A DNA stretch of 64,000 nt from a virus. The notes below the pieces were generated by a model, which saw nothing but the letters and a program-made list of their open reading frames with translations, had not been told where the DNA came from and did no database searches. This document shows, piece by piece, positions 2 to 19,637 of this stretch. Location of the stretch: IMG/VR virus record IMGVR_UViG_3300001450_010303, positions 1 to 64,000 of that record. One strand, written 5' to 3'. Within the stretch, counting starts at the first letter, position 1. Each line of letters begins with the position of its first letter. The translations under genes and the position numbers were made by a program.

Positions 2-259
2 GACTCCAGCGACCGAGAAGGCATCCACGATGCACTAAAGATGGTGCGTATCATGCACACAAAGTATTCGGGGAACGCTACCGCACACAAAGAATCGTTC
101 AGCAAGATTGAGTTTATCAAGATGCTCCGCAAGTTTATGAAGGAATCCATCGAACACCTTGACGATCCCGATTCTGGACAGGTCCGGGATATGACCGACA
201 TGCCAAATCTTCGTAATGCCAAGCGTTTCGCTGACCGCATATTTACGGGGATGCGATGA
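2..259 (+). CDS. C-terminal part of an unknown protein, cut by window edge
   Basis: The frame is open from base 2 to the stop at 257-259, giving 85 visible residues. An internal ATG lies at 41, but there is no stop upstream of it, so the gene probably begins before the window. The piece is charged and helical in character (KIEFIKMLRKFMKES, then NAKRFADRIF) and carries no motif I recognise. Its stop overlaps the ATG of the next gene, so the two are likely translationally coupled. Confidence 0.6.
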   Translation, partial: DSSDREGIHDALKMVRIMHTKYSGNATAHKESFSKIEFIKMLRKFMKESIEHLDDPDSGQVRDMTDMPNLRNAKRFADRIFTGMR

Positions 260-441
260 AGGTTGGTGATCTGGTGAGAATGAAAACCCATAATACGGGA
301 CTTGTCGGCATTGTGATGGGCAGGTATCCTAAATACACCGATACCGGTCCTATACAGATAGGTATAAAATGGTTTAAGGGGTCAGGTAAGACGGACTGGG
401 AACCCGAATCTTGGTTGGAGGTAGTAAGTGAAAGTCGGTAA
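256..441 (+). CDS. small VGDLV-family protein (SH3-like barrel suspected)
   Basis: 61 residues starting MKVGDLVRMK. The pattern is shared by many small ORFs in this window: a GDLV-type start, a central GIV strand (VGIVMGR), a (V/I)KW strand (IGIKWF) and an acidic or hydrophobic end (WLEVV). By pattern this looks like one small beta-barrel. The molecular role is unknown. The ATG overlaps the previous stop (ATGA), and the next family member starts inside its 3' end. Confidence 0.75.
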   Translation: MKVGDLVRMKTHNTGLVGIVMGRYPKYTDTGPIQIGIKWFKGSGKTDWEPESWLEVVSESR

Positions 442-607
442 CTTGGTCCGAAGAAATCACTACGGCGCACCGAGCAAAGGCCGCGGCCCAGTCGGCATCA
501 TTATCAGGCGCGCCCTATCACTACCGTCCGAATGGTGGATCGTGGAGTGGGCCGGGGATGGTCGCGAGACTATAAGATCAGAACACCTAAAAGTCGTTAG
601 CTCTTGA
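428..607 (+). CDS. second VGDLV-family protein, GTG start
   Basis: 59 residues from a GTG: VKVGNLVRRN, then GPVGIIIRR, WWIVEWAG and EHLKVV. This matches the neighbour at 256 in layout, which is why the GTG is chosen. It overlaps that gene by 14 bases in another frame. The stop codon TGA at 605-607 sits inside the first TTGAC box of the following promoter, an arrangement seen repeatedly in this region. Function unknown. Confidence 0.7.
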   Translation: MKVGNLVRRNHYGAPSKGRGPVGIIIRRALSLPSEWWIVEWAGDGRETIRSEHLKVVSS

Positions 608-658
608 CATTCTCTTGACAACTTAAACCTTGACTTCTACCCTATTCGGTGTTATATT
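604..658 (+). promoter_or_regulatory. triple-box promoter, copy 1
   Basis: TTGACA-type boxes begin at 604, 615 and 630 (spacings 11 and 15). The third (TTGACT) is a good -35, followed by a 17-base spacer and TATATT at 653-658. The leader TATTATAGGTATAGAAAGG then supplies a Shine-Dalgarno. It drives 682 and 797. Confidence 0.85.
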
Positions 659-681
659 ATAGGTATAGAAAGGGGCAAAAA

Positions 682-795
682 ATGCTTGAAAAACGAAACG
701 GAATGATGATCGCCACGATCATCGCAGACTTAACTTGCTGGACAGGGCTTATTGCCCTCGGCTTTCACTGGGCAGCATGCCCGCTTGGATGGTAG
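682..795 (+). CDS. 37-residue hydrophobic peptide
   Basis: The ATG at 682 follows an AAAGGGG ribosome site in the copy 1 leader, so this is the first gene of the transcript. After a short basic start (MLEKRNG) almost the whole peptide is hydrophobic (MMIATIIADLTCWTGLIALG), consistent with one membrane span. It ends one base before the next ATG. No family recognised. Position and ribosome site are the main support. Confidence 0.6.
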   Translation: MLEKRNGMMIATIIADLTCWTGLIALGFHWAACPLGW

Positions 796-796
796 A

Positions 797-1156
797 ATGA
801 AAATAGAACTGACAGACAGTGAGATCGAGGTAGTGATGAAGGCTCTTGAACACTTCACCAGAGCCCCACATTCGATCCGCGAGGGTGTGTGCATCGACGA
901 GATCAATGAGATCGCAGATGACATTCGCGAACAGGACTGCCGCCGCGATGATGGATGGGGGATCGATGCTGAGATCAATGCGGAAACGCAGATGTTTAGT
1001 GTTGGTGTAGAGGCCCGCGAGAAGATGAAGGCGACAAGCCAAGCGGCCAGCCGACGTGCGTTAAAGTTTATATCTCCTGGAACACCGAAGAATCGATCCA
1101 AAAATCAGGACGTTGATGTATGGGCTCCACCACCCAATGATCCTGCAAAGTGGTAG
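797..1156 (+). CDS. unknown 119-residue protein
   Basis: The ATG at 797 is chosen over an in-frame ATG at 752 because it follows the stop of the 682 peptide by one base. The protein starts MKIELTDSEIEVVMKALEHF, a mainly helical N-terminus, with an acidic middle and a Pro-rich end (WAPPPNDPAKW). No catalytic motif seen. It belongs to the early promoter block. Confidence 0.65.
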   Translation: MKIELTDSEIEVVMKALEHFTRAPHSIREGVCIDEINEIADDIREQDCRRDDGWGIDAEINAETQMFSVGVEAREKMKATSQAASRRALKFISPGTPKNRSKNQDVDVWAPPPNDPAKW

Positions 1157-1166
1157 GTGACGAATA

Positions 1167-1301
1167 ATGACGCTTCTAACTGTGCTTTCGATTCTTTGTG
1201 CCCCCGGCTCTGGTAGTGTGTTCGATCCAACCATTGAGCCACTCATAGCCCCACTCACGCTTGACATTCCCTTGACAACTTTGCCATTGACAAGGGGCTA
1301 A
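1167..1301 (+). CDS. possible small secreted peptide (weak)
   Basis: 44 codons beginning MTLLTVLSILCAPGSGS, which looks like a short signal sequence. The frame runs straight through all three boxes of promoter copy 2, which could be chance. There is a GGTGACG stretch upstream but no strong ribosome site. I would not rely on it. Confidence 0.3.
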   Translation: MTLLTVLSILCAPGSGSVFDPTIEPLIAPLTLDIPLTTLPLTRG

Positions 1302-1314
1302 AAGCGGTTATATT
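1261..1314 (+). promoter_or_regulatory. triple-box promoter, copy 2
   Basis: Boxes begin at 1261, 1272 and 1287 (spacings 11 and 15). The third (TTGACA) is a consensus -35, with a 16-base spacer to TATATT at 1309-1314. The same leader as copy 1 follows. It drives the zinc-knuckle gene at 1340. Confidence 0.85.
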
Positions 1315-1339
1315 ATAGGTATAGAAAGGAAAGAAAACT

Positions 1340-2209
1340 ATGTCATACAACGGAACCGTTCGCTGCTCTTACTGCTACACTACTGGCCATAACAAGCGCA
1401 AGTGTTCTGACTATACCGCGATGGTGCTGCGCCGCTATAATGATAATCTGGGCTTTGCCGCGCAAGTTGATGAAGCCCGTCCTGACCACTACTTGCAGCA
1501 AGCCGAGCGGTACCGTCTTGTATACATGAAGCGCACCAAGATCGATCCCGCGACAGGCGAGAAGGTGAAGAACAAGACGGCGAAAGCCGAGCGCATGAAG
1601 AAAGTGACTTGCGGTTATTGCTCTCAGCGAGGTCACACCCGCCGAGTGTGTGGGGTTGTCGAGCGTGACAAGCTGGTATTCATCGAGGAATCCCGCCGTG
1701 TTCGTGCTGGTGTGCTTGAAGATGCCCGCGAGACTGGCATCGGTGTGGGTTCAATGATCCCTATCCGCACACGCGGATATAACGCTGATAATGAGTGGGG
1801 GACACACACAACACTCCGCTATGTTAAGAGTGTAGATTGGAACACGGTTACTGCTAACCGCGCAGGGTTGTGGGTATATCATGTTGATGCTCGGAAACTT
1901 GGTGCAGCCAATCAAGGCCGCTGGACCTCTCGCGACAAGATCGTGAGCCTACGGGAAAACTTTAACGAAGCATGTAGCCATGCAGAACTTCAGAACCATT
2001 CTGAGCCAACCGCTTCGCTTATCCCATCGCTCGATCCGGCCGCTGGCTGGCTGGACTGTGAGCCTTCTACTATCGACGTTGCGGCCCACTTCCCGACCAA
2101 GGGTAACAAGTATGAAAAGCAACGCGGCCACAACTATACGTGGCCACGCGGTGTGACGGCAGAAGTGATCCGCGATCTCGGACTTGAAGAACATTATGAA
2201 GTCTCTTGA
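1340..2209 (+). CDS. double CCHC zinc-knuckle protein
   Basis: 289 residues with two zinc knuckles of the form C-x2-C-x4-H-x4-C: C9, C12, H17, C22 (CSYCYTTGHNKRKC) and C91, C94, H99, C104 (CGYCSQRGHTRRVC). Such knuckles usually bind single-stranded nucleic acid, so an RNA- or ssDNA-binding role is likely. The C-terminal 180 residues are unassigned. It has its own strong promoter, and its TGA stop lies in box 1 of copy 3. The early position suggests host takeover or transcript handling, which is inference. Confidence 0.8.
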   Translation: MSYNGTVRCSYCYTTGHNKRKCSDYTAMVLRRYNDNLGFAAQVDEARPDHYLQQAERYRLVYMKRTKIDPATGEKVKNKTAKAERMKKVTCGYCSQRGHTRRVCGVVERDKLVFIEESRRVRAGVLEDARETGIGVGSMIPIRTRGYNADNEWGTHTTLRYVKSVDWNTVTANRAGLWVYHVDARKLGAANQGRWTSRDKIVSLRENFNEACSHAELQNHSEPTASLIPSLDPAAGWLDCEPSTIDVAAHFPTKGNKYEKQRGHNYTWPRGVTAEVIRDLGLEEHYEVS

Positions 2210-2259
2210 CATTTCCCTGACACCTCTCGCCTTGACTTATGGGCGAGAGCGGTTATATT
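2206..2259 (+). promoter_or_regulatory. triple-box promoter, copy 3, with no gene behind it
   Basis: Boxes begin at 2206, 2217 (CTGACA) and 2232 (TTGACT), then a 16-base spacer and TATATT at 2254-2259. Only about 45 bases separate it from copy 4. That stretch holds a GA-rich leader and at most a TTG-started 8-codon frame ending at 2308-2310. It may be a lost cassette or a booster promoter for the MoxR gene. Confidence 0.75.
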
Positions 2260-2308
2260 ATAAGGGTAAGAAAGAGAAAGAAAAGTTGTCATCCGATAAC
2301 AAAAACCT

Positions 2309-2363
2309 CTGACATTTACTTGACAACAAAAAACTTGACGTATAGCCCATTTGGTGTTATATT
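2309..2363 (+). promoter_or_regulatory. triple-box promoter, copy 4
   Basis: Boxes begin at 2309 (CTGACA), 2320 and 2335 (TTGACG), with a 17-base spacer to TATATT at 2358-2363. The leader differs from the other copies after the -10. It drives the MoxR-type ATPase at 2413. Confidence 0.8.
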
Positions 2364-2412
2364 TATAGAGTAAGAACAAAAAGCCACCAACCCTCCCCGG
2401 AGAAAAACCACT

Positions 2413-3501
2413 ATGACCATCGATTTCGCAACCTTCCTCGCTGTCGCTCCCCACGTCCTCAACTCGCGCCTTCCGGTGCTGATCCGTGGCAAGCATGGGG
2501 TTGGTAAGTCTCAGATCGTCTATCAGATCGCGGAGAAGCGCAAGCTACCAGTGGTAGAGCGCCGCGCATCGCAGATGACCGAGGGTGATCTTCTTGGTCT
2601 GCCCGACACAGCAGACACACAGATCAATGGTCGCAAAGCTACTACGTGGAACGCCCCTGACTGGCTTGTGACGGCTTGCGAGCAGCCGGTGTGCCTATTC
2701 CTCGATGAAGTGGATCGCGCCACCTTGGAGGTGCGTCAGGGGCTCTTTGAGCTTACTGATAGCCGTAAGCTGAACGGGTGGAACCTCCACCCTGAGACCC
2801 TGATCGTCGCTGCTGTCAATGGTGGCGAGCACGGCGCTCAGTACCAAGTTGGCGAAATGGACCCCGCCGAGCTTGACCGCTGGACCGTGTTCGATGTCGA
2901 GCCTTCTACTGAAGACTGGCTCAAGTGGGCCAATGGTCGGATTCCCTCTATCGTGTGGGACTTCATTAACCATAACCGTGGCCACCTTGAGCATGAAGGT
3001 GACTATGAGCCTAACAAGGTTTATCCTTCACGCCGCTCATGGGATCGCTACTGCCAAACCGCTGAGCCGGCTGGTGTGTTCGGTGAGGAAGGGGATCGCG
3101 ATATGCTGTTCAACCTTGCGACTGCGTTCCTTGGCTTTGAGGCTGCTGTGTCCCTCCGTGACTTCGTTGAGAAGTACGAGTGGCAAGTATCGGTTGAGGA
3201 TATTCTTGACAAGGGCGACTTTTCCAAGACTTCCAAGTGGGGGATCAATGATCACTCCGCGATGATCGAGAAGTTTGATGCCGCTGGTGTGTTCAAGCCT
3301 GACTTGTCCGACGACCAGATCAGCAACCTTGCTGAATACTTCGTTGCTCTGCCTTCCGAGGTAGCTATGAAGCTGTGGAGCGTCTTGGGCGATACCGACA
3401 ACATTAACAACGTGGTATCGCTCCATAAGGCTGAAACAAAGGACGGAGCAAAGGTATCTGAACACTTGGTGGAGATCCTTGGTGGTGGTGATGACCAATG
3501 A
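2413..3501 (+). CDS. MoxR-type AAA+ ATPase
   Basis: 362 residues. Walker A is GKHGVGKS at residues 26-33, Walker B is CLFLDE at 94-99, and a sensor-1-like stretch VAAVNGG follows near 133-139. This is the MoxR/RavA branch of AAA+ ATPases, which act as chaperone-like motors together with vWA-domain partners. The fitting partner lies downstream at 4433, after three small ORFs. The 3' end overlaps the next gene by 4 bases. The client is unknown. An early role in remodelling a host complex is inference. Confidence 0.9.
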   Translation: MTIDFATFLAVAPHVLNSRLPVLIRGKHGVGKSQIVYQIAEKRKLPVVERRASQMTEGDLLGLPDTADTQINGRKATTWNAPDWLVTACEQPVCLFLDEVDRATLEVRQGLFELTDSRKLNGWNLHPETLIVAAVNGGEHGAQYQVGEMDPAELDRWTVFDVEPSTEDWLKWANGRIPSIVWDFINHNRGHLEHEGDYEPNKVYPSRRSWDRYCQTAEPAGVFGEEGDRDMLFNLATAFLGFEAAVSLRDFVEKYEWQVSVEDILDKGDFSKTSKWGINDHSAMIEKFDAAGVFKPDLSDDQISNLAEYFVALPSEVAMKLWSVLGDTDNINNVVSLHKAETKDGAKVSEHLVEILGGGDDQ

Positions 3502-3728
3502 GCACTCAAGCCTTCTCACAACGTCGTCGGCCATGCGTCGGTGACGTTGTGAGGCTTAGCGCCCCCGCCAGTATTGGCCGAGCGTATAGGCGCACACACG
3601 GAGCAGGGATCGTCACAAGCATCAGTGACCCGGATGGCCGCCGTCGAGAGTATGAAGTTAAGTGGCTTAAAAGTCGAGAGAGAATGAAGTTTAATGAAGA
3701 AGACCTTATCATCGTCTCGCCTGTCTGA
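3498..3728 (+). CDS. VGDLV-family protein
   Basis: 76 residues. The family core starts near residue 14: VGDVVRLS, GAGIVTSIS, YEVKWLKS and EDLIIV. The ATG overlaps the MoxR stop (ATGA), so it is co-translated with it. An N-terminal tail (MSTQAFSQRRRP) is added in front of the usual family start. Function unknown. Confidence 0.75.
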   Translation: MSTQAFSQRRRPCVGDVVRLSAPASIGRAYRRTHGAGIVTSISDPDGRRREYEVKWLKSRERMKFNEEDLIIVSPV

Positions 3729-3732
3729 CAAG

Positions 3733-3936
3733 GTGAGAGTAGGCGACCTGCTGACCATCGAGCGGTATAACAAAACCATACCGGCCTTAGTTCTGGAAGT
3801 TAAAGAGATCAAGTATGCTGTTGGCTATGCTGACAAGGCAAGAAAAGAGTTTAAGGTGCTCGAATCCGGCAAAGAACGATGGTACGCCGACATAGAACTA
3901 TCAGCGATATTCAAGAAACCACAAAGTAGAGAATAA
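3733..3936 (+). CDS. VGDLV-family protein, GTG start likely
   Basis: From the GTG at 3733 the protein is 67 residues and begins VRVGDLLTIE, matching the MKVGDLV starts of its relatives. An in-frame ATG at 3694 would overlap the previous gene by 35 bases and is less likely. Later strands are PALVLEVKE and YADIELSAIF. Third member of the moxR transcript. Confidence 0.65.
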   Translation: MRVGDLLTIERYNKTIPALVLEVKEIKYAVGYADKARKEFKVLESGKERWYADIELSAIFKKPQSRE

Positions 3937-3938
3937 AT

Positions 3939-4355
3939 ATGAACCTAACAGCCGCAGCCATCCTATCCTATAGTTTATTGTGTCCAGCCAACAGTGATAC
4001 AATGTTCACATATCCATCGGACAAGTATTCACATTGTGTTAAAACACCCCAGCCGTTCTATAGAATAGGATCCAGGTTTATTCCTGTGCCACTTACCACT
4101 AAGAACAACTTATACCCTGATCGCCCCCATTTTTATGGTAGTGTTACGCGCAATCCGCCTTCGACTCCTTTGTTAATAAATAGGCTTTGGCCGCGTGTCA
4201 CCAAACCTCGAAGAACCAAAAAGACTCCCCGATTTTCAGTATCCTTGGAATGCAATAGACCACCCATGGGCACACCATACTATAATGTTCCGTGTTCTAC
4301 TGGATCGCCAAATAACGCTTTTTCTATAGCACTGACTTGGCGAATAACTCCTTGA
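3939..4355 (+). CDS. unknown 138-residue protein, possibly exported
   Basis: It starts two bases after the previous stop. The first 20 residues (MNLTAAAILSYSLLCPANS) look like a weak signal peptide. The rest is rich in Pro, Asn, Tyr and Arg, with several Cys. Composition differs from its neighbours and I recognise no family. The stop falls within promoter copy 5. Confidence 0.5.
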   Translation: MNLTAAAILSYSLLCPANSDTMFTYPSDKYSHCVKTPQPFYRIGSRFIPVPLTTKNNLYPDRPHFYGSVTRNPPSTPLLINRLWPRVTKPRRTKKTPRFSVSLECNRPPMGTPYYNVPCSTGSPNNAFSIALTWRITP

Positions 4356-4406
4356 CACTCTCTTGACAACTTTCGCCTTGACGATAGCCCTTTTCGGTGC
4401 TATATT
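4352..4406 (+). promoter_or_regulatory. triple-box promoter, copy 5
   Basis: Boxes begin at 4352, 4363 and 4378 (TTGACG), with a 17-base spacer to TATATT at 4401-4406, then the common leader TATTATAGGTATAGAAAGGA. It drives the vWA gene at 4433. Confidence 0.85.
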
Positions 4407-4432
4407 ATAGGTATAGAAAGGAAAAAACGACT

Positions 4433-5746
4433 ATGACCACCAAAACTGACATTCCAGAGTTCGACCAAGAAACTGAGCCAACCGAGATCGCAGAGGACGC
4501 ACCTAAGACCTTTGACCTGAATAAGCATATGGCTCGTTTGCTTATGCGCGAACCATTTTTCGCTGGCCTCTCGCGTCGTATCGACAAACGCTCCAGCTAC
4601 GAAGTGCCGACCGCTGGTGTGCGAGTGAATCCAGTCACGGCCCAGTTTGAGCTACTGTATAATCCTGAGTTTTTTGCTTCTCTCAGCGATACTCACAAGT
4701 TGGGTGTTCTGAAGCATGAGTTTTATCACCTGATCTTAGAGCATGTGACCAACCGTAAGCCGGCTGATGGCCTGAAGCGGATCGATAACATCGCGATGGA
4801 CCTTGCGATCAACAGTCACATCGCCAACGAGTTGCCCAATGAGGCAAACCCTGGCCCGATCATTGTGGTCGATAAGAGTGGAAAGGGTGAGCCGATGAAG
4901 GCTTGCATCCCCGGCGAAGGCAAGCTGTTTGCTGACCTTCCAACCCATAAATCATATGAGTGGTATTTGAACGCTCTTAAAAAGATGGCTGAGGAACAGG
5001 AACAGGAACAGGACGGCGATGGCGAACCCGGTGAAGGCGGGGATCCTTTTGGCGACACCGACAGCTTTGACAGCCATGAAGGTTTCGGTGAGGCCGATGG
5101 TACCACCCAAGAGATCGCTAAGGAGCGTTTGAAGGAAACTCTCAAGAAGGCCGCCGAAGAAGCGGAGAAGGCGCGCAACTGGGGAACCGTATCGTCATCA
5201 ATGAGAAAAGATATTATGGATCGTATCGCCTCAAAAGTTGATTGGCGCAAGGTGCTACGGTACTTCGTTAAAACTTCACAACGCAGCGACAAGCGCAGTA
5301 CTCCGCGCCGCTTGAACAAGCGTTATCCTCGCGTCCATCCCGGCAAGCGCGTCCGTCGTCACGCCAAGATTGCGATCAGTATCGACCAATCTGGATCTGT
5401 GGATGATGCGATGCTTGCCGCCTTTTTCGGTGAGTTAAATAAGTTGGCCGAGATCGCAGAGTTTACCGTGGTACCATTTGATACTGTGGTTGCGGAGGAT
5501 AAGGTTTATGTCTGGAAAAAGGGCAAGACCCAAAAGACCGAGCGCGTGATGTGTGGTGGAACGTGCTTTGATGCTCCCACCAAATATGTCAATGATCGCA
5601 ACTTTGATGGTCATATTGTCTTGACCGATCTCTGCGCTCCCAAGCCGATCCGAAGCCAGTGCCAAAGAATGTGGATGACCACCAAAGCCCACGCAGCCCG
5701 CCCATACTTTTCAACCAACGAACGTATCATAGCTATCGACAGCTAA
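4433..5746 (+). CDS. metallopeptidase-like/vWA protein, MoxR partner
   Basis: 437 residues from the ATG at 4433, which follows the ribosome site GAAAGGAAAAAA. The N-terminal half has a zinc-peptidase-like HExxH variant (H95-E-F-Y-H99). A Glu/Gly-rich linker near 185-220 follows. The C-terminal half is a vWA-like domain with a MIDAS motif D318-x-S320-x-S322 (DQSGS), a later GGT and an LTD. This two-domain layout is the DUF2201 type that accompanies MoxR ATPases. With the ATPase at 2413 it probably forms one metal-dependent remodelling machine. Whether the HEFYH site is active is unclear. Confidence 0.85.
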   Translation: MTTKTDIPEFDQETEPTEIAEDAPKTFDLNKHMARLLMREPFFAGLSRRIDKRSSYEVPTAGVRVNPVTAQFELLYNPEFFASLSDTHKLGVLKHEFYHLILEHVTNRKPADGLKRIDNIAMDLAINSHIANELPNEANPGPIIVVDKSGKGEPMKACIPGEGKLFADLPTHKSYEWYLNALKKMAEEQEQEQDGDGEPGEGGDPFGDTDSFDSHEGFGEADGTTQEIAKERLKETLKKAAEEAEKARNWGTVSSSMRKDIMDRIASKVDWRKVLRYFVKTSQRSDKRSTPRRLNKRYPRVHPGKRVRRHAKIAISIDQSGSVDDAMLAAFFGELNKLAEIAEFTVVPFDTVVAEDKVYVWKKGKTQKTERVMCGGTCFDAPTKYVNDRNFDGHIVLTDLCAPKPIRSQCQRMWMTTKAHAARPYFSTNERIIAIDS

Positions 5747-5782
5747 GGTGCGTTAAACTTTCTCGAACACAGGAGAGAAAAC

Positions 5783-6118
5783 ATGCAAGCCCTTAAAATA
5801 TATGGATCCCCACGCACAAACGATAAAGTCATCAAAGCATGGCAGAATGGCGTAAGTGCGCGCAATCACAGGTATTCTTTGACCTCGATCTCGTACCCAA
5901 ATGGAAGTGCAGAGCTATTTAGCTATGACTTAAAGATCGGAGAGCGCACCCCAGCGGGCGTATTTGTCATCGCTGACTTTACCGCACCAGCCAAGGGTTT
6001 TCATTCTATGACTACGTCTCAGCACGTGAATCTCGCTAAATATCAGACGGGCAGCGCGGTGATCATGAATCCGCTGGTGTGGGAGTGTTCGCCAATGAGC
6101 GAGAGCAAGCCCTTTTAG
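5783..6118 (+). CDS. unknown 111-residue protein
   Basis: A good ribosome site (CAGGAGAGAAAAC) precedes the ATG. The sequence is mixed alpha/beta with TPAGVFVIADF and HVNLAKY stretches and no catalytic motif I recognise. Its TAG stop shares a base with the GTG of the next gene, so the two are coupled. It follows the vWA gene by 36 bases and is probably on the same transcript. Confidence 0.65.
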   Translation: MQALKIYGSPRTNDKVIKAWQNGVSARNHRYSLTSISYPNGSAELFSYDLKIGERTPAGVFVIADFTAPAKGFHSMTTSQHVNLAKYQTGSAVIMNPLVWECSPMSESKPF

Positions 6119-6321
6119 TGGAAAAGTTCAAGACTGGCGATCTGGTCAAGATCCGCGAGGGAACCCACGCGACTGAGATCCCTGAGCATCGAACCGGCAT
6201 GATCATCGAGCGCGGAGAGGCTTCGGGAAACTACACCGAGTCTTACACCGTTATCTTTCTCGGCACCGACATACACTTAAAGTTCCACGCTATGTTCTTG
6301 GAACACTTTACATCTACCTGA
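6118..6321 (+). CDS. VGDLV-family protein, GTG start
   Basis: 67 residues reading (M)EKFKTGDLVKIRE, TGMIIERG, YTVIFLG and AMFLEHF. The GTG at 6118 overlaps the previous stop by one base. An upstream in-frame GTG at 6079 is possible but would add residues not seen in relatives. The stop falls in promoter copy 6. Function unknown. Confidence 0.7.
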   Translation: MEKFKTGDLVKIREGTHATEIPEHRTGMIIERGEASGNYTESYTVIFLGTDIHLKFHAMFLEHFTST

Positions 6322-6360
6322 CATTTGAAACCTTGACAATAGACCTCAAGCGGTTATATT
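6307..6360 (+). promoter_or_regulatory. triple-box promoter, copy 6 (box 1 degenerate)
   Basis: Box 2 is CTGACA at 6318 and box 3 TTGACA at 6333 (spacing 15). Exactly 11 bases before box 2 lies TTTACA at 6307, a decayed box 1. A 16-base spacer leads to TATATT at 6355-6360. It drives 6386 and following genes. Confidence 0.8.
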
Positions 6361-6385
6361 ATAGGTATAGAAAGGAGAAAAATCT

Positions 6386-6580
6386 ATGCTTACCCTTCCA
6401 CTCATTCGCACCGACGACGATTCTACCCTGACCCCCATTGAGCGTACTGCCGTAGCATGCGAGCAGGTGATCACCGCTTTGCTGATGGCGGCATCAATGG
6501 GCGATCCTCGCCTGAACGACCAAGAGCGCGAGGTTCTAACAACCCTGAGCGTTGCAACCATCGTACCAGCGGAGGCATAA
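6386..6580 (+). CDS. unknown 64-residue protein
   Basis: The ATG follows the common AGAAAGGAGAAAA leader. The protein is short and probably helical (PIERTAVACEQVITALLMAASMG, split here by eye into two helices). No motif. It ends one base before the ATG of the SWIM gene. Confidence 0.6.
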   Translation: MLTLPLIRTDDDSTLTPIERTAVACEQVITALLMAASMGDPRLNDQEREVLTTLSVATIVPAEA

Positions 6581-6581
6581 A

Positions 6582-6899
6582 ATGGATTTACCTATCGTTG
6601 TCAGCATGAATCCAATGTTATACACTGATCGATCCGGTCAGAAGTGGGCGGTGTCCGGCCAACATTGGGTTGAAGTGCCTGATACCCTGACTCTCGATCA
6701 GGTTGGCAAGTATATGATCATGGAGCCATATGAAACACCCGCACAAGCGGCTGACGTTGTATCCTATGAGGTTCAAGGCAGCAAGGGGAATACCTACAAT
6801 GTGACCGACAACGGAGGTACGTGGACCTGTACGTGTCCCGGTTTTGGTTGGCGTCGGAAGTGCAAACATGTCGAGGCTCAGAAAAATGAAAGTCGGTGA
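6582..6899 (+). CDS. SWIM zinc-finger protein
   Basis: 105 residues. The C-terminus holds a SWIM-type C-x-C-xn-C-x-H motif: C83, C85, C94, H96 (CTCPGFGWRRKCKH). SWIM fingers bind DNA or protein. The upstream 80 residues form a small beta-rich region (SYEVQGSKGNTYNV). The start at 6582 is preferred because it directly follows the previous stop. It overlaps the next gene by 14 bases. Confidence 0.75.
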   Translation: MDLPIVVSMNPMLYTDRSGQKWAVSGQHWVEVPDTLTLDQVGKYMIMEPYETPAQAADVVSYEVQGSKGNTYNVTDNGGTWTCTCPGFGWRRKCKHVEAQKNESR

Positions 6900-7077
6900 T
6901 CTGGTGACGTATACCTTTCAAGGCAGACGATGGCAGGAAGGTCTATCCGTCGATGTTGGTATAGTTGTCGAAACAGGCAAATGGACAGGCAACGCCGACG
7001 TTAAAGTTTTATGGTCGGGTAACTCCGTAGCAGTTACGCAGAAAGGTGATCATCTCAGACTCTTGACACCCTCTTGA
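6886..7077 (+). CDS. VGDLV-family protein
   Basis: 63 residues: MKVGDLVTYTF, VDVGIVVETG, VKVLWSG and DHLRLLTP, a textbook member of the family. The ATG lies within the end of the SWIM gene. The stop (TGA at 7075-7077) falls in box 2 of promoter copy 7. Confidence 0.8.
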   Translation: MKVGDLVTYTFQGRRWQEGLSVDVGIVVETGKWTGNADVKVLWSGNSVAVTQKGDHLRLLTPS

Positions 7078-7117
7078 CAACTTAAACCTTGACGATCGCC
7101 GCTTTCGGTGCTATATT
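7063..7117 (+). promoter_or_regulatory. triple-box promoter, copy 7
   Basis: Boxes begin at 7063, 7074 and 7089 (TTGACG), with a 17-base spacer to TATATT at 7112-7117 and the common leader. It drives 7143. Confidence 0.85.
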
Positions 7118-7142
7118 ATAGGTATAGAAAGGAAAGAACACT

Positions 7143-7970
7143 ATGACCACTCAAACCCGCATGAACTGGAATGTCGCCTTCACCACCCTGATCGGGAGTG
7201 TTGCGCTTCAAGGCAAGGATCGCACCGTGATCGAAAGCATGCATGCACATTGGTCGCGGGGCAAGTCGATGACTGTTGGCCGTAAGCAGTATTTTCTTGC
7301 CATCCAAGAGCGTACACAACGCACCGCAGTTGCCCTGAAAGAGCGCGCAACCGGTGACGGTGAGACTACCATGGGCAAGCGGCTGTTCGCCCTTCAGGAG
7401 CGTATGGGCGAGGAAGGAACACAGTGGGATCAGGAGTTTGTCGAAAGCGTAGCGGTTCAAGAGGTTCAGGGGAGAACCCTCAGCGCGCGCCAGATTCAGA
7501 TCCTGGAAGGGATCGAAGTTAAGTTTTCCGATGAGTCTCAGAACGCAGCCAAGACCTTTGTTGAAGACTTCGAGAGCAACAAAGATAATATGAGGACCAA
7601 CTTCGAGCGTATGATAGCGTATTACATCGCAAACCCGCCTTACTATCGCAACGCTGTGCGTTCCCAGCTTTCAGATCCACAGTGGATCCCGACCACCGAA
7701 ACCTATAACAAGGTGATGGGCTCCGCGTATACCACAAAGGTGCTGGAAGGCTATACAGCAGCCCCTAAGTACGAAGTTGGCGCGCTGGTCTTTGCAAACT
7801 CCAAGCTGCCCCACAACGCCGCGATGTGGATGCTGAAGGGCGCAATGGTGATGAATACCAGCGGTGCGATCATAAGTGCATGTAAGAACAACAAACTCTA
7901 TACTTTGCTCCCGATCGGCGGCACTACAACGATCCAAGTTGAAGAACGTTATTTGAAGGCGCGCAGATGA
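7143..7970 (+). CDS. unknown 275-residue protein with C-terminal VGDLV-like domain
   Basis: The first 200 residues are mostly helical and charged, with no catalytic motif. The last 65 or so (YEVGALVFANSK, GAIISACKN, QVEERYLK) follow the layout of the small VGDLV proteins, so this looks like a fusion of that domain to a helical body. It could show how the small proteins act as modules. It overlaps the next ATG by 4 bases. Confidence 0.7.
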   Translation: MTTQTRMNWNVAFTTLIGSVALQGKDRTVIESMHAHWSRGKSMTVGRKQYFLAIQERTQRTAVALKERATGDGETTMGKRLFALQERMGEEGTQWDQEFVESVAVQEVQGRTLSARQIQILEGIEVKFSDESQNAAKTFVEDFESNKDNMRTNFERMIAYYIANPPYYRNAVRSQLSDPQWIPTTETYNKVMGSAYTTKVLEGYTAAPKYEVGALVFANSKLPHNAAMWMLKGAMVMNTSGAIISACKNNKLYTLLPIGGTTTIQVEERYLKARR

Positions 7971-8272
7971 TGAAAATATGGGTTGTAAGACAGACGTGTG
8001 CTCATTCCAATGACACTTATCTAAGCACACACATAACAGAAAAGGGCGCACTGATCACAGCTATCGAAGCGGTGCGGGCAGATATGGCTGATGGGCTGGA
8101 CGGTGACGAACTTGAAGATATGCGGCCGGGAATGCCTCACGACTTTGATGAAGATTTGATGAAGTATAGCAGCGATCACCTTCGCGGCATCGTTCAAGAT
8201 TGGTGGGAATATGCGTGGGAGATCGATGAATACCAACAGTATCAGATACACCAAACACAGGTGACAGCATGA
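7967..8272 (+). CDS. unknown acidic 101-residue protein
   Basis: The ATG overlaps the previous stop (ATGATGA). A short beta start (MKIWVVRQTCA) is followed by an acidic, helix-rich stretch with a Trp pair (DWWEYAWEIDEY). No family recognised. Strong negative charge could suit a nucleic-acid mimic, but that is only a guess. Confidence 0.6.
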   Translation: MMKIWVVRQTCAHSNDTYLSTHITEKGALITAIEAVRADMADGLDGDELEDMRPGMPHDFDEDLMKYSSDHLRGIVQDWWEYAWEIDEYQQYQIHQTQVTA

Positions 8273-8282
8273 AAGCAATCGC

Positions 8283-8337
8283 TTGACATTCACTTGACAA
8301 GAAAGGGCTTGCGTTTTGGCGCACCCTGTGGTATAAT
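8283..8337 (+). promoter_or_regulatory. triple-box promoter, copy 8
   Basis: Boxes begin at 8283, 8294 and 8309 (degenerate TTGCGT), with a 17-base spacer to a consensus TATAAT at 8332-8337, then AGAAAGGAGAG. It drives 8363. Confidence 0.8.
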
Positions 8338-8362
8338 CTATATATAGAAAGGAGAGAAATCT

Positions 8363-8536
8363 ATGATCGAAGTCGGAAGCATGGTGACAAATGTGGGATT
8401 TATCCAAGGTCGCAATAACTCAAATCACGGGGTGGTTATCAGCTTGATGGCAGGCGGCAAGATTGCCCGTGTGTTCTGGGCTTCAACCCAAAAGAGCGGA
8501 TTTTGCTCCGTCGTAGACCTGCAAGTAATCGCTTGA
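8363..8536 (+). CDS. VGDLV-family protein
   Basis: 57 residues: MIEVGSMVTNVG, HGVVISLM, ARVFWAS and VDLQVIA. The ATG follows AAAGGAGAGAAAT. The stop TGA at 8534-8536 is part of box 1 of promoter copy 9. It is a single-gene cassette between two promoters. Confidence 0.75.
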   Translation: MIEVGSMVTNVGFIQGRNNSNHGVVISLMAGGKIARVFWASTQKSGFCSVVDLQVIA

Positions 8537-8597
8537 CATTCACTTGACAACTTAGTTATTGACTTACCCCCGTTTTAGTGGTATAATGGTTATACCA
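8533..8597 (+). promoter_or_regulatory. triple-box promoter, copy 9, with palindrome over the -10
   Basis: Boxes begin at 8533, 8544 and 8559 (TTGACT), with a 17-base spacer to TATAAT at 8582-8587. The -10 lies in a perfect inverted repeat TGGTATAATGGTTATACCA (8579-8597), a likely operator. It drives 8615. Confidence 0.85.
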
Positions 8598-8614
8598 AGT
8601 AAGGAGAAACCACC

Positions 8615-8890
8615 ATGGCTTCACAAATCGACACCGTTATACTTTTCGCAGACGCATGCGAAACCTTCACCACCGAGATCCTTCCGATGATCCAAGAGCA
8701 GTTTGAGCAGGACGGTATTCCTGACATGCCCGCCCGCCGCGAGGCATGGAATAACTGGGTTGATGGACTGAGCCAAGACGGGCAGATCAGCGAGTGGCAA
8801 GCAGACAACTGGGGACACCCAGACTGCAACGATGACAACCAACCGCGCACTTCAAGCTGGACCGGTAACGCTTGGCCGATCAACTACTAA
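8615..8890 (+). CDS. unknown acidic 91-residue protein
   Basis: Good ribosome site (AAGGAGAAACCACC). Acidic and Trp-rich in the second half (WNNWVDGL, EWQADNWG, SSWTGNAW). No motif recognised. It is a single-gene cassette under promoter copy 9. Confidence 0.65.
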   Translation: MASQIDTVILFADACETFTTEILPMIQEQFEQDGIPDMPARREAWNNWVDGLSQDGQISEWQADNWGHPDCNDDNQPRTSSWTGNAWPINY

Positions 8891-8894
8891 TCTG

Positions 8895-8959
8895 CTGACA
8901 TTCACTTGACAACAAAAGCATTGACTTACCCCCGTTTTTCTGGTATAATGGTTATACCA
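8895..8959 (+). promoter_or_regulatory. triple-box promoter, copy 10, with palindrome
   Basis: Boxes begin at 8895 (CTGACA), 8906 and 8921 (TTGACT), with a 17-base spacer to TATAAT at 8944-8949, inside the same 19-base palindrome (8941-8959) as copies 9 and 11. Confidence 0.85.
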
Positions 8960-8976
8960 AACAAGGAAAGAAGACC

Positions 8977-9306
8977 ATGACCAGCATCCAAACCAACTAC
9001 ATCGTGACCCTCACTTATATCCACTCAAGCGGCGGGTGGCACGGTGGTTATGATGCTGCCACTGATCGGCGCGAGGTGGCGCTTAACATCGCGGCAGACT
9101 GCGCGCACAATGCTAACCACATCGCGATCCGCAAGTACATCAACGGCGGCCAGCCGGAGATCATCAGCACTGCGCTCCACGCGCAGCAAGGTGAAGGCAC
9201 CGCGCAGGTCATCGCCTGGATCGACAGGATGAAGAACCTGGGCTGGTTCGACGATGCGAGGAAGGCGAAAGCCGCCCAAAAGTTTGCCGCCTGTGCTGCC
9301 GCGTAA
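8977..9306 (+). CDS. unknown 109-residue protein
   Basis: The ATG follows CAAGGAAAGAAGACC. It starts with a beta strand (NYIVTLTYIH) and ends in an Ala/Lys-rich helix (ARKAKAAQKFAACAAA). No family recognised. GC content is visibly high here (about 60% in the line from 9061). Single-gene cassette. Confidence 0.65.
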   Translation: MTSIQTNYIVTLTYIHSSGGWHGGYDAATDRREVALNIAADCAHNANHIAIRKYINGGQPEIISTALHAQQGEGTAQVIAWIDRMKNLGWFDDARKAKAAQKFAACAAA

Positions 9307-9310
9307 GCCT

Positions 9311-9375
9311 CTGACATTCACTTGACAACTTAGTTGTTGACTTACCCCCACATTTCTGGTATAATGGTTATACCA
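9311..9375 (+). promoter_or_regulatory. triple-box promoter, copy 11, with palindrome
   Basis: Boxes begin at 9311 (CTGACA), 9322 and 9337 (TTGACT), with a 17-base spacer to TATAAT at 9360-9365, inside the palindrome 9357-9375. It drives 9393 onward and is the last copy of the series. Confidence 0.85.
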
Positions 9376-9392
9376 AACAAGGAAAAAACACT

Positions 9393-9797
9393 ATGAACTT
9401 CACTGACTTCACTCTTGAGCAACTTACTGACTCTGACGGCAATTTTCGCTATCGCCCTGATCCGATGATCAACAATATCGAGATCACCTCAAACCGTAAG
9501 AAGGTCTATCGCCCACAGCCGGCACCGCCAACGCGCAAGCAACTCACCGGCTGGACCGTCGAGCAGGTTGGTCCTAAGATGTGGCGCGTGTTTCGCAACT
9601 CGACCACGCAGGGCAAGCAGATCGTGATGGACTTCAGCGCGCCAGAAAGCGCACAGTCATTTGCCGATGGTTGCAACCGGGAGCACAAAACCCCTACCAA
9701 GATGAGCGCGTCCAGCCTTCGCAACAAAGCCAAGGAACACTTGAGCGACGAAGAAAAGGCCGATCTTGCTGCGCTTGCTGCTGGCGAGGGCATCTAA
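9393..9797 (+). CDS. unknown 134-residue protein
   Basis: Good ribosome site (CAAGGAAAAAACACT). It has a Pro-rich stretch (RPQPAPPTRKQ), then WTVEQVGPKMWRVF, and a charged helical C-terminus (HLSDEEKADLAALAAGEG). No catalytic motif. It begins the transcript that continues into 9808, 10088, 10192 and 10380. Confidence 0.65.
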   Translation: MNFTDFTLEQLTDSDGNFRYRPDPMINNIEITSNRKKVYRPQPAPPTRKQLTGWTVEQVGPKMWRVFRNSTTQGKQIVMDFSAPESAQSFADGCNREHKTPTKMSASSLRNKAKEHLSDEEKADLAALAAGEGI

Positions 9798-9807
9798 AAC
9801 AGATCCT

Positions 9808-10095
9808 ATGTCAAAGTATTTTGTAAGCAAAACAGAAGTGTTAATAATCGACGGTAGGATCGACGGTTATGAAACACCCTTGACTAAACCTTGCACCCAC
9901 GACCAAGCGGTTGAGGGGTTAAGAAGGTATAAGAATCTTGGTATTAAGAACATACATCTGTGCAAGCATACAACCAAGCGATACAACAAGTTGATCCGCG
10001 AGTATAACAAAAGAAGAAAAGAAGTTAAACTCACAGTAGCGGATATTGCACAGATGACCGAACAAGCAGCAGAGGCAGAAGAAAAGAATGAATAG
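9808..10095 (+). CDS. unknown basic 95-residue protein
   Basis: The ATG at 9808 (MSKYFVSKTEVLIIDG) lies 10 bases after the previous stop. A Lys/Arg-rich middle (TTKRYNKLIREYNKRRK) is followed by an acidic helix. It could bind nucleic acid by charge alone. It overlaps the next small ORF by 8 bases. Confidence 0.6.
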   Translation: MSKYFVSKTEVLIIDGRIDGYETPLTKPCTHDQAVEGLRRYKNLGIKNIHLCKHTTKRYNKLIREYNKRRKEVKLTVADIAQMTEQAAEAEEKNE

Positions 10096-10186
10096 TACAG
10101 AAGTTATCGCAGTATATACAGTTCTAACGGCACTATGGTGTGTCATTGATTACAACCTAAAGTGTGTTCGTCACACAGGAGAATAA
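10088..10186 (+). CDS. 32-residue hydrophobic peptide
   Basis: The ATG overlaps the end of the 9808 gene. The peptide is MNSTEVIAVYTVLTALWCVI plus a short basic tail: one predicted membrane span. It ends six bases before the next ATG, whose ribosome site lies within its own coding end. Support comes from overlap and hydrophobicity. Confidence 0.5.
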   Translation: MNSTEVIAVYTVLTALWCVIDYNLKCVRHTGE

Positions 10187-10191
10187 ACCAT

Positions 10192-10386
10192 ATGGAAATG
10201 ATGATCTTTTTTGGAGCGGCTGCTATGGCCATTATCTTTGTGATAGTTACCGAACGTATCTCAATCGAGCTACGCGGTATCCGATCGGTGCTGATGGAGC
10301 ACGCTCAGCTTGAGCCTGTACCCGTCCGAGAGCATGATCCGAGCCGGTACCAACGCAAGAAGAGCGGTAGCCCACCTGTATGCTAA
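10192..10386 (+). CDS. 64-residue single-span membrane protein
   Basis: The ATG follows CACAGGAGAATAAACCAT. Residues 3-20 (MMIFFGAAAMAIIFVIVT) form a membrane span. The rest (about 44 residues) is polar and would face the cytoplasm or periplasm. An upstream GTG at 10162 is in frame but lacks a better ribosome site. Function unknown. Confidence 0.65.
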   Translation: MEMMIFFGAAAMAIIFVIVTERISIELRGIRSVLMEHAQLEPVPVREHDPSRYQRKKSGSPPVC

Positions 10387-10622
10387 ATGATGGCGATGGT
10401 TCCCGCTTTAATGTTGGTGGTTCAGTGGTAGGGCGGGAACCATTTGCCCGAGGCGACTTAATAAAAAGAAAGAAGATAGGCCCAATGGCCCGGGCGTTGT
10501 GTATGGTTATAAGCGAGGACTCTGATAACTATACATTTTATAACTTTAGTACAAAGAAGTTGCACACGACTATTAAATGTGTGATGATAGAGTTATATGA
10601 TAGGTATCCACAGGATGTATAA
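10380..10622 (+). CDS. VGDLV-family protein
   Basis: 80 residues. The family core begins at about residue 22: FARGDLIKRKK, ALCMVISED, NYTFYNF and IKCVMIELYD. The start overlaps the previous stop. Its 5' end contains a GGTTCCCGC...GCGGGAACC inverted repeat (about 10399-10441), which may fold in the mRNA. Last gene before the 450-base gap. Confidence 0.65.
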   Translation: MLNDGDGSRFNVGGSVVGREPFARGDLIKRKKIGPMARALCMVISEDSDNYTFYNFSTKKLHTTIKCVMIELYDRYPQDV

Positions 10623-10668
10623 CAGTATTTATAGGTGGTGTATGATGTATAGGCTTTAATGTGTTATA

Positions 10669-10699
10669 TTGACAGTGAGTGATGGATGATGTTTATAAT
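10669..10699 (+). promoter_or_regulatory. possible sigma70-type promoter in the gap
   Basis: A perfect TTGACA at 10669-10674 and a perfect TATAAT at 10694-10699, but with a long 19-base spacer. No large gene follows, so it might drive an RNA or the peptide at 10909. Confidence 0.35.
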
Positions 10700-10908
10700 G
10701 TGGTAGATATGCGGTGGAGTTTAGTACGTAGTCGCATCCCACCACAAACGACCATTATGTATCACAATGCAACAACATTCCTCAACAATATCAACGACAT
10801 GCGGTGACACATGCTAGCAATATGCGACAGCATATGCCGCCTGTAACGCCGGTTATCGTGACGCATTGAAACACACTAAGTGCGACAGCACAAGGAGAAA
10901 CATATACT

Positions 10909-10992
10909 TTGATACATGATACAGAACGTCGACGCGATGTGACAACTGTGCTATTTATCGTCGGTTTGATAGCGTTATTGCTTATAACCTGA
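10909..10992 (+). CDS. possible 27-residue membrane peptide, TTG start
   Basis: An AAGGAG at 10892-10897 is followed 11 bases later by a TTG-started frame: a polar, Arg-rich start (HDTERRRD) and one hydrophobic span (VTTVLFIVGLIALLLIT). The start codon and long spacing make it uncertain, though the charge/hydrophobic layout is typical of small phage membrane peptides. Confidence 0.35.
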   Translation: MIHDTERRRDVTTVLFIVGLIALLLIT

Positions 10993-11073
10993 CGAAATCC
11001 TCGAAACACCCGATTTTAAAACCCCAACAATATCAACCACTTAGTTAAGGTCCGCCTTAAAGGAACTAGAACA

Positions 11074-11391
11074 ATGCAAGAAACCATCTACACCATCGGC
11101 AGCGCACGACTCAATAAGAATGAGATTGACATTCTATGCGGCATGCCCGATACCACCGAGACTATAACAAACATTATACATATATCAGAACTAGCAGACC
11201 CACTAGATGCGGAGGATGCTGTTCATCATCTTATACTTGAGGGCTTGCTTGAGTGGACATACGTTGGTGAGACTGTACGTGTATCAGATGAAACATATGA
11301 ATGGTTTGATACACACGGTGATACACTGGCCGGCCTATCATTGATGCTTAATACAGATCTGTTTGAGTTAGATGAGATGGCTGTCGCATGA
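11074..11391 (+). CDS. unknown 105-residue acidic protein
   Basis: Ribosome site AAAGGAACTAGAACA. The pattern of helices (LNKNEIDILCGM, DAEDAVHHLILEGLLEW) followed by a beta hairpin (TYVGETVRVSDETYEWF) resembles a small winged-helix fold, so a DNA-binding or anti-host role is possible. This is a fold guess only. Acidic overall. Confidence 0.6.
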   Translation: MQETIYTIGSARLNKNEIDILCGMPDTTETITNIIHISELADPLDAEDAVHHLILEGLLEWTYVGETVRVSDETYEWFDTHGDTLAGLSLMLNTDLFELDEMAVA

Positions 11392-11401
11392 GTAATACAT
11401 A

Positions 11402-11557
11402 ATGAATGGCAAGAAGGCGAGAACACTTAATAAAATATTAGATACAGTATGTGTCTTCGCCTTCTTCATGCCAGTTACATTAGTAGTGTATGGTTATATA
11501 GGTAGAGAGTGCGTACGCTATACAGTTAAAGGTGTGAAGGAGAGACTGTACAGGTGA
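11402..11557 (+). CDS. 51-residue single-span membrane peptide
   Basis: ATG at 11402. Basic start (MNGKKARTLNK), a hydrophobic span at residues 14-32 (TVCVFAFFMPVTLVVYGYI) and a basic tail. Positive charge on both sides of the span. No family recognised. Confidence 0.5.
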   Translation: MNGKKARTLNKILDTVCVFAFFMPVTLVVYGYIGRECVRYTVKGVKERLYR

Positions 11558-11611
11558 ATGATTTAAATATGTATTGTTTGTCGCAACTGTTTTGATACAT
11601 TGTGACAGACA

Positions 11612-11633
11612 CCCCCCTCCTCCCCCCTACCCC
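11612..11633 (-). other. G-run tract on the minus strand (possible quadruplex)
   Basis: The + strand carries C runs of 6, 2, 6 and 4 separated by single T or TA. The minus strand therefore has GGGG-TA-GGGGGG-A-GG-A-GGGGGG, which can in principle fold into a quadruplex. It sits about 24 bases before the gene at 11657. It stands out in an otherwise AT-rich stretch. Confidence 0.4.
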
Positions 11634-11656
11634 GGAATGTATGTCGCATATATGTG

Positions 11657-12034
11657 ATGTGGCTGGTTTGGTGGGCTAAGTACGCTTTAGATCCCGCGCC
11701 AAAATTTCCAGATCTAAAAAACACCGCCAAAAAAAATCAAGATATAGTGCCTACATATTACATGGCCGACGGTACCGAACAGCTCAAATCGCTCAAAGAA
11801 TTCTTCGCACTACCGCCGGCCGGACATACAATAGCGTTGGGCGCCCTTGTAGCATGCACGTGCCACCCGGAGAGTATCGCAGTAGTCATCGAGCTATACG
11901 ACGGCAGTAACGGCGAGGGGCCACCGATGAACATGGCGAAGATATATTGGATACGGAGACCAAAAGGATATAATAGTCGGATATGGATGCACACGATCGC
12001 GAGGCTAAAAGAATATAACCCACCAGCCATATAG
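11657..12034 (+). CDS. 125-residue protein with C-terminal VGDLV-like domain
   Basis: ATG at 11657 (a GTG at 11654 is also in frame). Residues 55-125 follow the family layout: IALGALVACTC, IAVVIELYDG, AKIYWIRR and IARLKEYN. The N-terminal part is basic and Trp-rich at the very start. The ribosome site is poor. It is followed after 7 bases by another family member. Confidence 0.55.
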   Translation: MWLVWWAKYALDPAPKFPDLKNTAKKNQDIVPTYYMADGTEQLKSLKEFFALPPAGHTIALGALVACTCHPESIAVVIELYDGSNGEGPPMNMAKIYWIRRPKGYNSRIWMHTIARLKEYNPPAI

Positions 12035-12041
12035 TTATAGC

Positions 12042-12338: not shown

Positions 12339-12396
12339 ATAAAACCACAGACATTTGCTTCTCAGCGTGCTATTTATACATGGAGACACTTTCATT

Positions 12397-12678: not shown

Positions 12679-12717
12679 ACTTTGTTTTCATAGTTACTGT
12701 ATGGGGGGTACTATGTG

Positions 12718-13017: not shown

Positions 13018-13059
13018 GGAAAATATCGCGATTTACGTAAGTTCATCGGTAGTTACTTT

Positions 13060-14336: not shown

Positions 14337-14351
14337 ACATAAGAGGTTAAA

Positions 14352-15083: not shown

Positions 15084-15086
15084 CAC

Positions 15087-15984: not shown

Positions 15985-15987
15985 ATA

Positions 15988-18868: not shown

Positions 18869-18876
18869 ACTTTATA

Positions 18877-18906: not shown

Positions 18907-18919
18907 TAAGTAAAACAAT

Positions 18920-19622: not shown

Positions 19623-19637
19623 GGAATATATAGTTAT

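What the first reader, a model, noticed from the sequence alone, without database searches (positions are those of the whole stretch)
604..9375. Eleven triple-box promoters with invariant 11/15-base spacing
Seen: each copy has TTGAC-type boxes with starts 11 and 15 bases apart, then a 16-17 base spacer to TATATT/TATAAT. The third box is the -35. Box 1 is kept even where decayed (TTTACA at 6307). The two upstream boxes are not needed for sigma70 itself. Repeats 11 bases apart lie on one face of the helix, like tandem half-sites of a response regulator. Read in reverse, TGTCA-x6-TGTCA recalls a Pho box, though in the opposite orientation to typical sites. Inference: a dedicated activator, host or phage, controls this regulon.
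Basis: partly seen in the sequence, partly recalled or inferred. Interest (0 to 1): 0.8.

Follow-up and report, generated by a model that had tools for sequence, protein, structure and literature searches.

The report
Marine phage early promoters with tandem boxes
Eleven early-gene promoters of an uncultured marine phage, and hundreds more in its relatives, carry two extra copies of TTGACA at rigid distances upstream of the normal promoter, which looks like the landing site of a still unidentified activator that switches on a whole block of phage genes.

Summary
Eleven co-oriented copies at 604-9365 have TTGAC-type boxes exactly 11 and 15 bp apart, then a 16-17 bp spacer and TATATT/TATAAT. The window is part of a 105-kb IMG/VR contig of a T4-like marine myophage. 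Relatives have co-oriented clusters of up to about 15 such promoters. Among sigma70-like promoters picked without regard to boxes, 47 of 58 inside the clusters carry both boxes and 0 of 97 elsewhere. Between orthologous promoters the boxes are 96% identical, other positions 41%. Boxes 1 and 2 (YTGACA) differ from the -35 (TTGAC), and the pair recurs without a promoter in a conserved non-coding element. Best reading: a tandem site for a class-I-like activator of the presumed early regulon. Its identity is unsolved. The phages encode no OmpR/PhoB-type regulator; four candidate phage proteins do not track the boxes. The Pho-box comparison fails on orientation, position and flanks. No published description was found in the searches made.

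The parts
604..658 (+). promoter copy 1: box1 604, box2 615, -35 630, -10 653-658; upstream of a small ORF at 682
1261..1314 (+). promoter copy 2: box1 1261, box2 1272, -35 1287, spacer 16; upstream of zinc-finger-like ORF 1340-2209
   Evidence: orthologous promoter at G013 198456
2206..2259 (+). promoter copy 3: box2 is CTGACA; spacer 16; tandem with copy 4
   Evidence: orthologue G013 199422
2309..2363 (+). promoter copy 4: box1 CTGACA; spacer 17; upstream of AAA_5 (MoxR-like) ATPase 2413-3501
   Evidence: orthologue G013 199525
4352..4406 (+). promoter copy 5; upstream of DUF2201 metallopeptidase/VWA gene, ATG at 4433, end 5746
   Evidence: orthologue G013 200714
6307..6360 (+). promoter copy 6: box1 TTTACA, box2 CTGACA; spacer 16; upstream of ORF 6386-6580
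7063..7117 (+). promoter copy 7; upstream of ORF 7143-7970
8283..8337 (+). promoter copy 8: boxes 1 and 2 intact, -35 decayed to TTGCG; upstream of a small ORF at 8363
8533..8587 (+). promoter copy 9; upstream of ORF 8615-8890; -10 lies in palindrome 8579-8597
8895..8949 (+). promoter copy 10: box1 CTGACA; upstream of ORF 8977-9306; -10 lies in palindrome 8941-8959
9311..9365 (+). promoter copy 11: box1 CTGACA; upstream of ORF 9393-9797; -10 lies in palindrome 9357-9375
11560..11740 (+). conserved C-rich non-coding element after the promoter cluster; in 18 of 32 distinct elements found it carries promoter-less TTGACA-N5-TTGACA pairs, while in this window the boxes are degenerate

Best explanation
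Boxes 1 and 2, (Y)TGACA-N5-(Y)TGACA on the coding strand, form one operator: a tandem, head-to-tail site for a dimeric sequence-specific activator. The site ends 9 bp upstream of a near-consensus sigma70 -35 and 31-32 bp upstream of the -10. The bound activator would cover roughly -61 to -45, leaving the AT-rich 5-mer after box 2 free for the RNA polymerase alpha C-terminal domain beside sigma region 4, a class-I-like arrangement. It would switch on a cluster of up to about 15 co-oriented transcription units of presumed early genes, while the other sigma70-like promoters of the phage are left alone. Shown: the architecture, its rigid spacing, its conservation, its restriction to the cluster, and that boxes 1/2 differ from the -35. 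Inferred: activation rather than repression, the alpha-CTD contact, and early timing. Source of the activator: unresolved; my odds are about 50% phage-encoded or virion-delivered, 40% host-encoded OmpR/PhoB-type, 10% other.
For: Confirmed anatomy. Spacing specificity in 2.9 M viral contigs: 11/15 at least 119 stretches, 10/15 2, 12/15 0, 11/16 0, 11/14 28. In 30 box-positive records every record has the pattern with up to 2 mismatches, against 2 hits in all for the reversed control. Promoters chosen without boxes: 47/58 in clusters versus 0/97 outside have both boxes, with sharp peaks at offsets 15 and 26. Orthologous promoters: boxes 65/68 identical, other positions 91/224, Fisher P about 1e-17. 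Box 1/2 specificity is independent of the -35: G048 has -35 TAGAC in 8/8 copies and G012 TTTAC in several, while boxes 1/2 mostly stay TTGACA. The pair recurs in a non-promoter element, 29 pairs at 11 bp versus 7 at 12 bp, and 69 forward versus 16 reverse single boxes. Conserved AT-rich 5-mer after box 2. Family geometry: ArcA direct repeats at 11 bp centre to centre, often in arrays (PMC3798270). Class I definition and PhoP examples (PMC3335776).
Against: No activator has been identified. Copies keep a good -35 and -10 and might fire without help. No OmpR/PhoB DNA-binding domain in 20 phage records. Candidate phage DNA-binding proteins do not track the boxes. No host is known. No expression data, so 'early' rests on analogy with T4-like phages. 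The cluster limits used in the 47/58 count were drawn around box-bearing promoters, so that fraction is somewhat circular; the 0/97 outside is less so.
Confidence: 0.6

Rival explanations
1. The activator is a host OmpR/PhoB-family response regulator, possibly PhoB, and the phage has borrowed a stress regulon.
For: Hexamer-N5-hexamer direct repeats at 11 bp are typical of the family (ArcA, PMC3798270; PhoP, PMC3335776). On the lower strand the half-site TGTCAA is close to the PhoB TGTCA core (recalled). Host PhoB is reported to bind cyanophage promoters (PMC10976474). The phages carry no such regulator themselves, and the window IscU is 74% identical to gammaproteobacterial IscU, so a gammaproteobacterial host rich in such regulators is plausible.
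Against: In the Pho-box sense the site is reversed, upstream of an intact -35, and lacks the AT-rich inter-repeat. A reversed PhoP box at 28-32 nt from the -10 gave little expression (PMC3335776) and here the distance is 31-32. The same triple box in 84,980 bacterial and archaeal genomes gave 3 hits: one is this phage clade itself in a MAG, and the two others are single hits without clade genes.
Confidence: 0.25
2. A phage-encoded protein already in the genome reads the boxes: the 111-aa ribbon-helix-helix-like protein, the 90-aa stand-alone sigma region 4 protein, the Fis-like protein or the 87-93-aa basic protein (window 23205-23486).
For: The RHH-like protein is in all near-complete box-positive genomes tested. 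The sigma4-like protein matches PF04545 at 2.8e-7 and the boxes resemble -35 elements. The 87-aa basic protein is in 6 of 7 box-positive genomes plus this window and in 0 of 3 box-negative ones.
Against: The RHH-like and Fis-like proteins are also in box-negative relatives G036, G037 and G045, and the RHH strand KR/KK-[IV]-[IVS]-F is the same there. The sigma4-like protein was not found in box-positive G002, G012, G016 and G020 and is present in box-negative G036 and G045. The 87-aa protein is missing at the syntenic place in box-positive G024. The RHH fold was not confirmed by structure search.
Confidence: 0.2
3. Boxes 1 and 2 are a repressor operator used to shut the early genes off later in infection.
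For: A tandem operator close to the promoter fits a regulator of either sign; arrays occur outside promoters too.
Against: The site lies wholly upstream of the -35 at a fixed distance, a poor place for steric blocking and a usual place for activators; the fixed 31-33 bp distance to the -10 suggests contact with polymerase.
Confidence: 0.15
4. No extra protein: the boxes are redundant -35-like elements or an upstream element that help polymerase or sigma4 to load.
For: The box sequence equals the sigma70 -35 consensus; other promoters of these phages have upstream A-rich sequence instead.
Against: Spacing is rigid to the base; no -10 lies at the right distance from boxes 1 or 2; box 1/2 and -35 diverge independently (G048); the pair occurs in a non-promoter element.
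Confidence: 0.1

Closest known systems
OmpR/PhoB-family tandem sites (PhoB box, ArcA box, PhoP box)
   Same: Two hexamer-like direct repeats with 11-bp period; 17-bp N6-N5-N6 layout as in the PhoP box; arrays of repeats at one or two turns are known for ArcA (PMC3798270)
   Different: Half-site reads TTGACA (TGTCAA on the other strand); orientation reversed relative to a Pho box; lies upstream of an intact -35 at a fixed distance; such regulators are not encoded by the phages
Host PhoB-controlled cyanophage genes (S-PM2d, P-SSM2; PMC10976474)
   Same: Phage promoters with a tandem site for a host response regulator
   Different: Few genes, different box (PyTTAAPyPyT/A), scattered positions, no uniform architecture across an early cluster
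T4 early promoters and early/middle control (sigma70 with upstream A-rich element; MotA boxes)
   Same: Strong sigma70-type promoters in front of small presumed early genes in a T4-like phage
   Different: T4 early promoters lack a tandem TTGACA pair; MotA boxes replace the -35, whereas here the -35 is kept (recalled knowledge)
Lambda CII sites (TTGC-N6-TTGC)
   Same: Tetramer direct repeats near the -35 read by a phage activator
   Different: CII repeats are 10 bp apart and straddle a poor -35 (recalled knowledge); here 11 bp apart and wholly upstream of a good -35

Membership tests
Pho box (PhoB site) | TGTCA-type direct repeats 11 bp apart | tested here: met
   lower strand reads TGTCA-N6-TGTCA in most copies
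Pho box (PhoB site) | half-sites point toward the -10 and the box replaces the -35 | tested here: not met
   half-sites point away; an intact -35 lies 15 bp downstream of box 2
Pho box (PhoB site) | AT-rich segment between the repeats | tested here: not met
   between-box bases are TTYNC with C at 94% at the last position
Pho box (PhoB site) | bound by PhoB and induced by phosphate starvation | not testable with these tools
   no host, no protein data
OmpR/PhoB-family operator in general | direct repeats with rigid 11-bp period | tested here: met
   526 YTGACA pairs at 11 bp versus 0-22 at most other distances (72 at 15) in 119 loci; spacing scans
OmpR/PhoB-family operator in general | a cognate wHTH regulator (Trans_reg_C) encoded by the phage | tested here: not met
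   0 of 20 records; a host protein is not excluded
PhoP-like reversed-box activation (architecture V) | reversed box at 27, 37 or 48 nt from the -10 | tested here: not met
   31-32 nt in nearly all copies; PMC3335776 reports little expression at 28-32
sigma70-type promoter | -35 TTGACa, 16-18 bp, -10 TATAAT-like | tested here: met
T4-like myophage (carrier of the feature) | Gp23 capsid, Gp20 portal, gp21-type protease, UvsX, gp32 | tested here: met
   relative G013 by Pfam and PHROGs; window phage is syntenic with it

The most novel reading that the evidence does not exclude
A previously unknown phage-encoded, probably virion-delivered, activator defines the immediate-early regulon of a large clade of uncultured marine T4-like phages; the same protein also binds tandem boxes in a conserved C-rich non-coding element, possibly a replication origin or autoregulatory region.
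Probability: 0.3. Interest if true: 0.8.

Novelty: new variant of a known kind. Interest (0 to 1): 0.6.

Why it matters
T4-like phages are generally thought to start infection on plain host sigma70 promoters. Here a whole clade of uncultured marine phages appears to place its first genes under an extra, rigidly positioned control site, which sister phages with plain or A-tract promoters lack. If confirmed it would give a regulon with a sequence tag that can be found in any metagenome, a route to the activator (a pull-down bait 17-30 bp long), and possibly a way to see whether the phage checks the state of its host before committing.

Tried and rejected
Searches for the promoter or the window in cultured phages: nothing useful. 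OmpR wHTH family in the phages: none. Ribbon-helix-helix, sigma4-like, Fis-like and basic-protein candidates: none follows presence/absence of the boxes; the RHH structure model was mediocre (pLDDT 70) and its Foldseek search gave nothing significant. A first multi-record pattern was typed with one N too many; it gave 14 hits with up to 2 mismatches versus 5 reversed controls and served as a negative control for 16-bp spacing. Gene-content comparison of 7 box-positive and 3 box-negative genomes left only a membrane protein as a strict marker once profiles were used. Host identification by tmRNA type and IscU suggests Gammaproteobacteria but is weak. Late-promoter motif TATAAATA was not enriched convincingly. 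Literature searches found no description of this architecture in the open-access library; subscription papers were not searchable.
Full report
Observation. The eleven copies are in the sequence as stated. Box starts are 11 and 15 bp apart in every copy, and the spacer to TATATT or TATAAT is 16 or 17 bp. The window gives 11 hits at 12 of 15 box letters on the + strand and none on the - strand; shuffles give about one. The window belongs to a 105,274-bp IMG/VR virus contig with no further convincing copy. Boxes 1 and 2 always end in A, box 3 usually does not, and the first T of boxes 1 and 2 may be C. So boxes 1/2 (YTGACA) and the -35 (TTGAC) are different elements that look alike.

What carries it. 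By synteny with a 203-kb relative (G013) that has Gp23, Gp20, a gp21-type protease, UvsX, gp32, PolA, GroEL and a B12-dependent ribonucleotide reductase, the window phage is an uncultured marine T4-like myophage. The nearest cultured relatives by the baseplate protein are only about 31% identical. IscU is 74% identical to gammaproteobacterial IscU, a weak hint at the host class.

Spread and spacing. The same scan gave 2 for 10/15, 0 for 12/15, 0 for 11/16 and 28 for 11/14, the last largely on contigs that also carry the main form. In 30 box-positive records every one has the pattern with up to 2 mismatches, up to about 15 per record in a co-oriented cluster, against 2 hits for the reversed control. 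The logo is C-TTGACA-TTY-N-C-TTGACA-ACTTA-N4-TTGAC-N17-TATATT (the box letters were fixed by the search, the flanking letters were not).

Selection and specificity. Where four orthologous promoters of the window phage and G013 can be paired, the boxes are 96% identical and the other positions 41%. When promoters are chosen only by -35, -10 and a ribosome-binding site, 47 of 58 inside the clusters have both boxes and 0 of 97 elsewhere in the same genomes, with sharp peaks at offsets 15 and 26 (cluster limits were drawn around box-bearing promoters). The -35 can change while boxes 1/2 mostly stay: TAGAC in all eight copies of G048 and TTTAC in several copies of G012. Related box-less phages have A-rich upstream sequence instead; G045 has its own early motif.

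Second context. The pair also occurs without a promoter in a C-rich intergenic element after the cluster: 18 of 32 distinct elements carry at least one pair, with 29 pairs at 11 bp and successive pairs about 23-24 bp apart. The window has this element at about 11560-11740 with degenerate boxes. This argues for a DNA-binding protein that recognises the pair on its own.

Mechanism. I take boxes 1+2 as a tandem site for an activator lying just upstream of an AT-rich 5-mer and the -35, that is, class-I-like with the alpha C-terminal domain between activator and sigma4. This is inference from position. Direct repeats at 11 bp are the hallmark of OmpR/PhoB-family sites (PMC3798270). The distance from box 2 to the -10 (31-32 bp) does not match the distances at which reversed PhoP boxes work (27, 37, 48; PMC3335776), so a simple reversed Pho or PhoP box is unlikely.

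Who binds. No OmpR-type domain in 20 phage records. A ribbon-helix-helix-like protein occurs in all near-complete box-positive genomes tested but also in box-less relatives with the same strand residues; its fold is my reading of the sequence and was not confirmed. A stand-alone sigma region 4 protein (PF04545) is missing from several box-positive genomes and present in two box-less ones. A small basic protein at window 23205-23486 is in six of seven box-positive genomes and no box-less one, but is missing from G024. The exact triple box in 84,980 bacterial and archaeal genomes gave three hits, one of which is this phage clade in a MAG and two of which look like chance. So the factor remains open.

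Verdict. Confirmed observation, partly supported interpretation, new variant of a known kind (phage regulon under a tandem-repeat activator site). Nothing like it was found in the open literature searched, but the library is incomplete.

Noticed in passing
window 11560-11740; also L105, L042, L037, L050, L008, L102, L013, L123: Conserved C-rich non-coding element (GGGGGTACCCCCCTACCCCCC...GAATGTATGTC...) with arrays of TTGACA pairs in relatives; looks like an origin or control region.
   Followed up: partly
window 8579-8597, 8941-8959, 9357-9375: Perfect palindrome TGGTATAA-TGG-TTATACCA overlapping the -10 in three copies; the same 19-mer is in 12 fetched loci. Possible second operator or leader hairpin.
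   Followed up: partly
window 28285-28630: Phage-encoded tmRNA with tag ANNNNNFESVRLAA; tmRNA also present in relatives G010 and G013.
   Followed up: partly
window 18920-19622: IscU and IscA-like Fe-S assembly genes; IscU 74% identical to gammaproteobacterial IscU.
   Followed up: partly
window 15481-15984, 19638-20063, 20060-20761: Several unrelated proteins share an N-terminal tag like M-KLLLENWR-x-FL-x-E, recalling T4 capsid-targeting sequences; they may be packaged and injected.
   Followed up: no
L134:12356-12628 (G013) and relatives: Stand-alone 85-95 aa protein with conserved cysteines and a sigma region 4.2 helix-turn-helix, next to a ribbon-helix-helix-like gene; possibly a gp33 counterpart (alignment A4).
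   Followed up: partly
window 2413-3501 and 4433-5746: MoxR-like ATPase and metallopeptidase/VWA pair, 75% identical to G013, both under triple-box promoters.
   Followed up: no
early clusters, e.g. G013 192000-198500 and window 256-441, 6844-7077: Many small paralogous proteins beginning MKVGDLV (SH3-like?) among the presumed early genes.
   Followed up: no
L277 (G045 3946-20677, minus strand): Box-less relative has its own repeated early promoter motif, roughly AAAAATAA-N2-CTTGACAnnCATTTAAAT-N5-TGnTATACT.
   Followed up: partly
L123 (NZIV01000080.1): Contig of a Neomarinimicrobiota MAG is this phage clade, with six tandem-box pairs: mis-binned phage or a host hint.
   Followed up: partly
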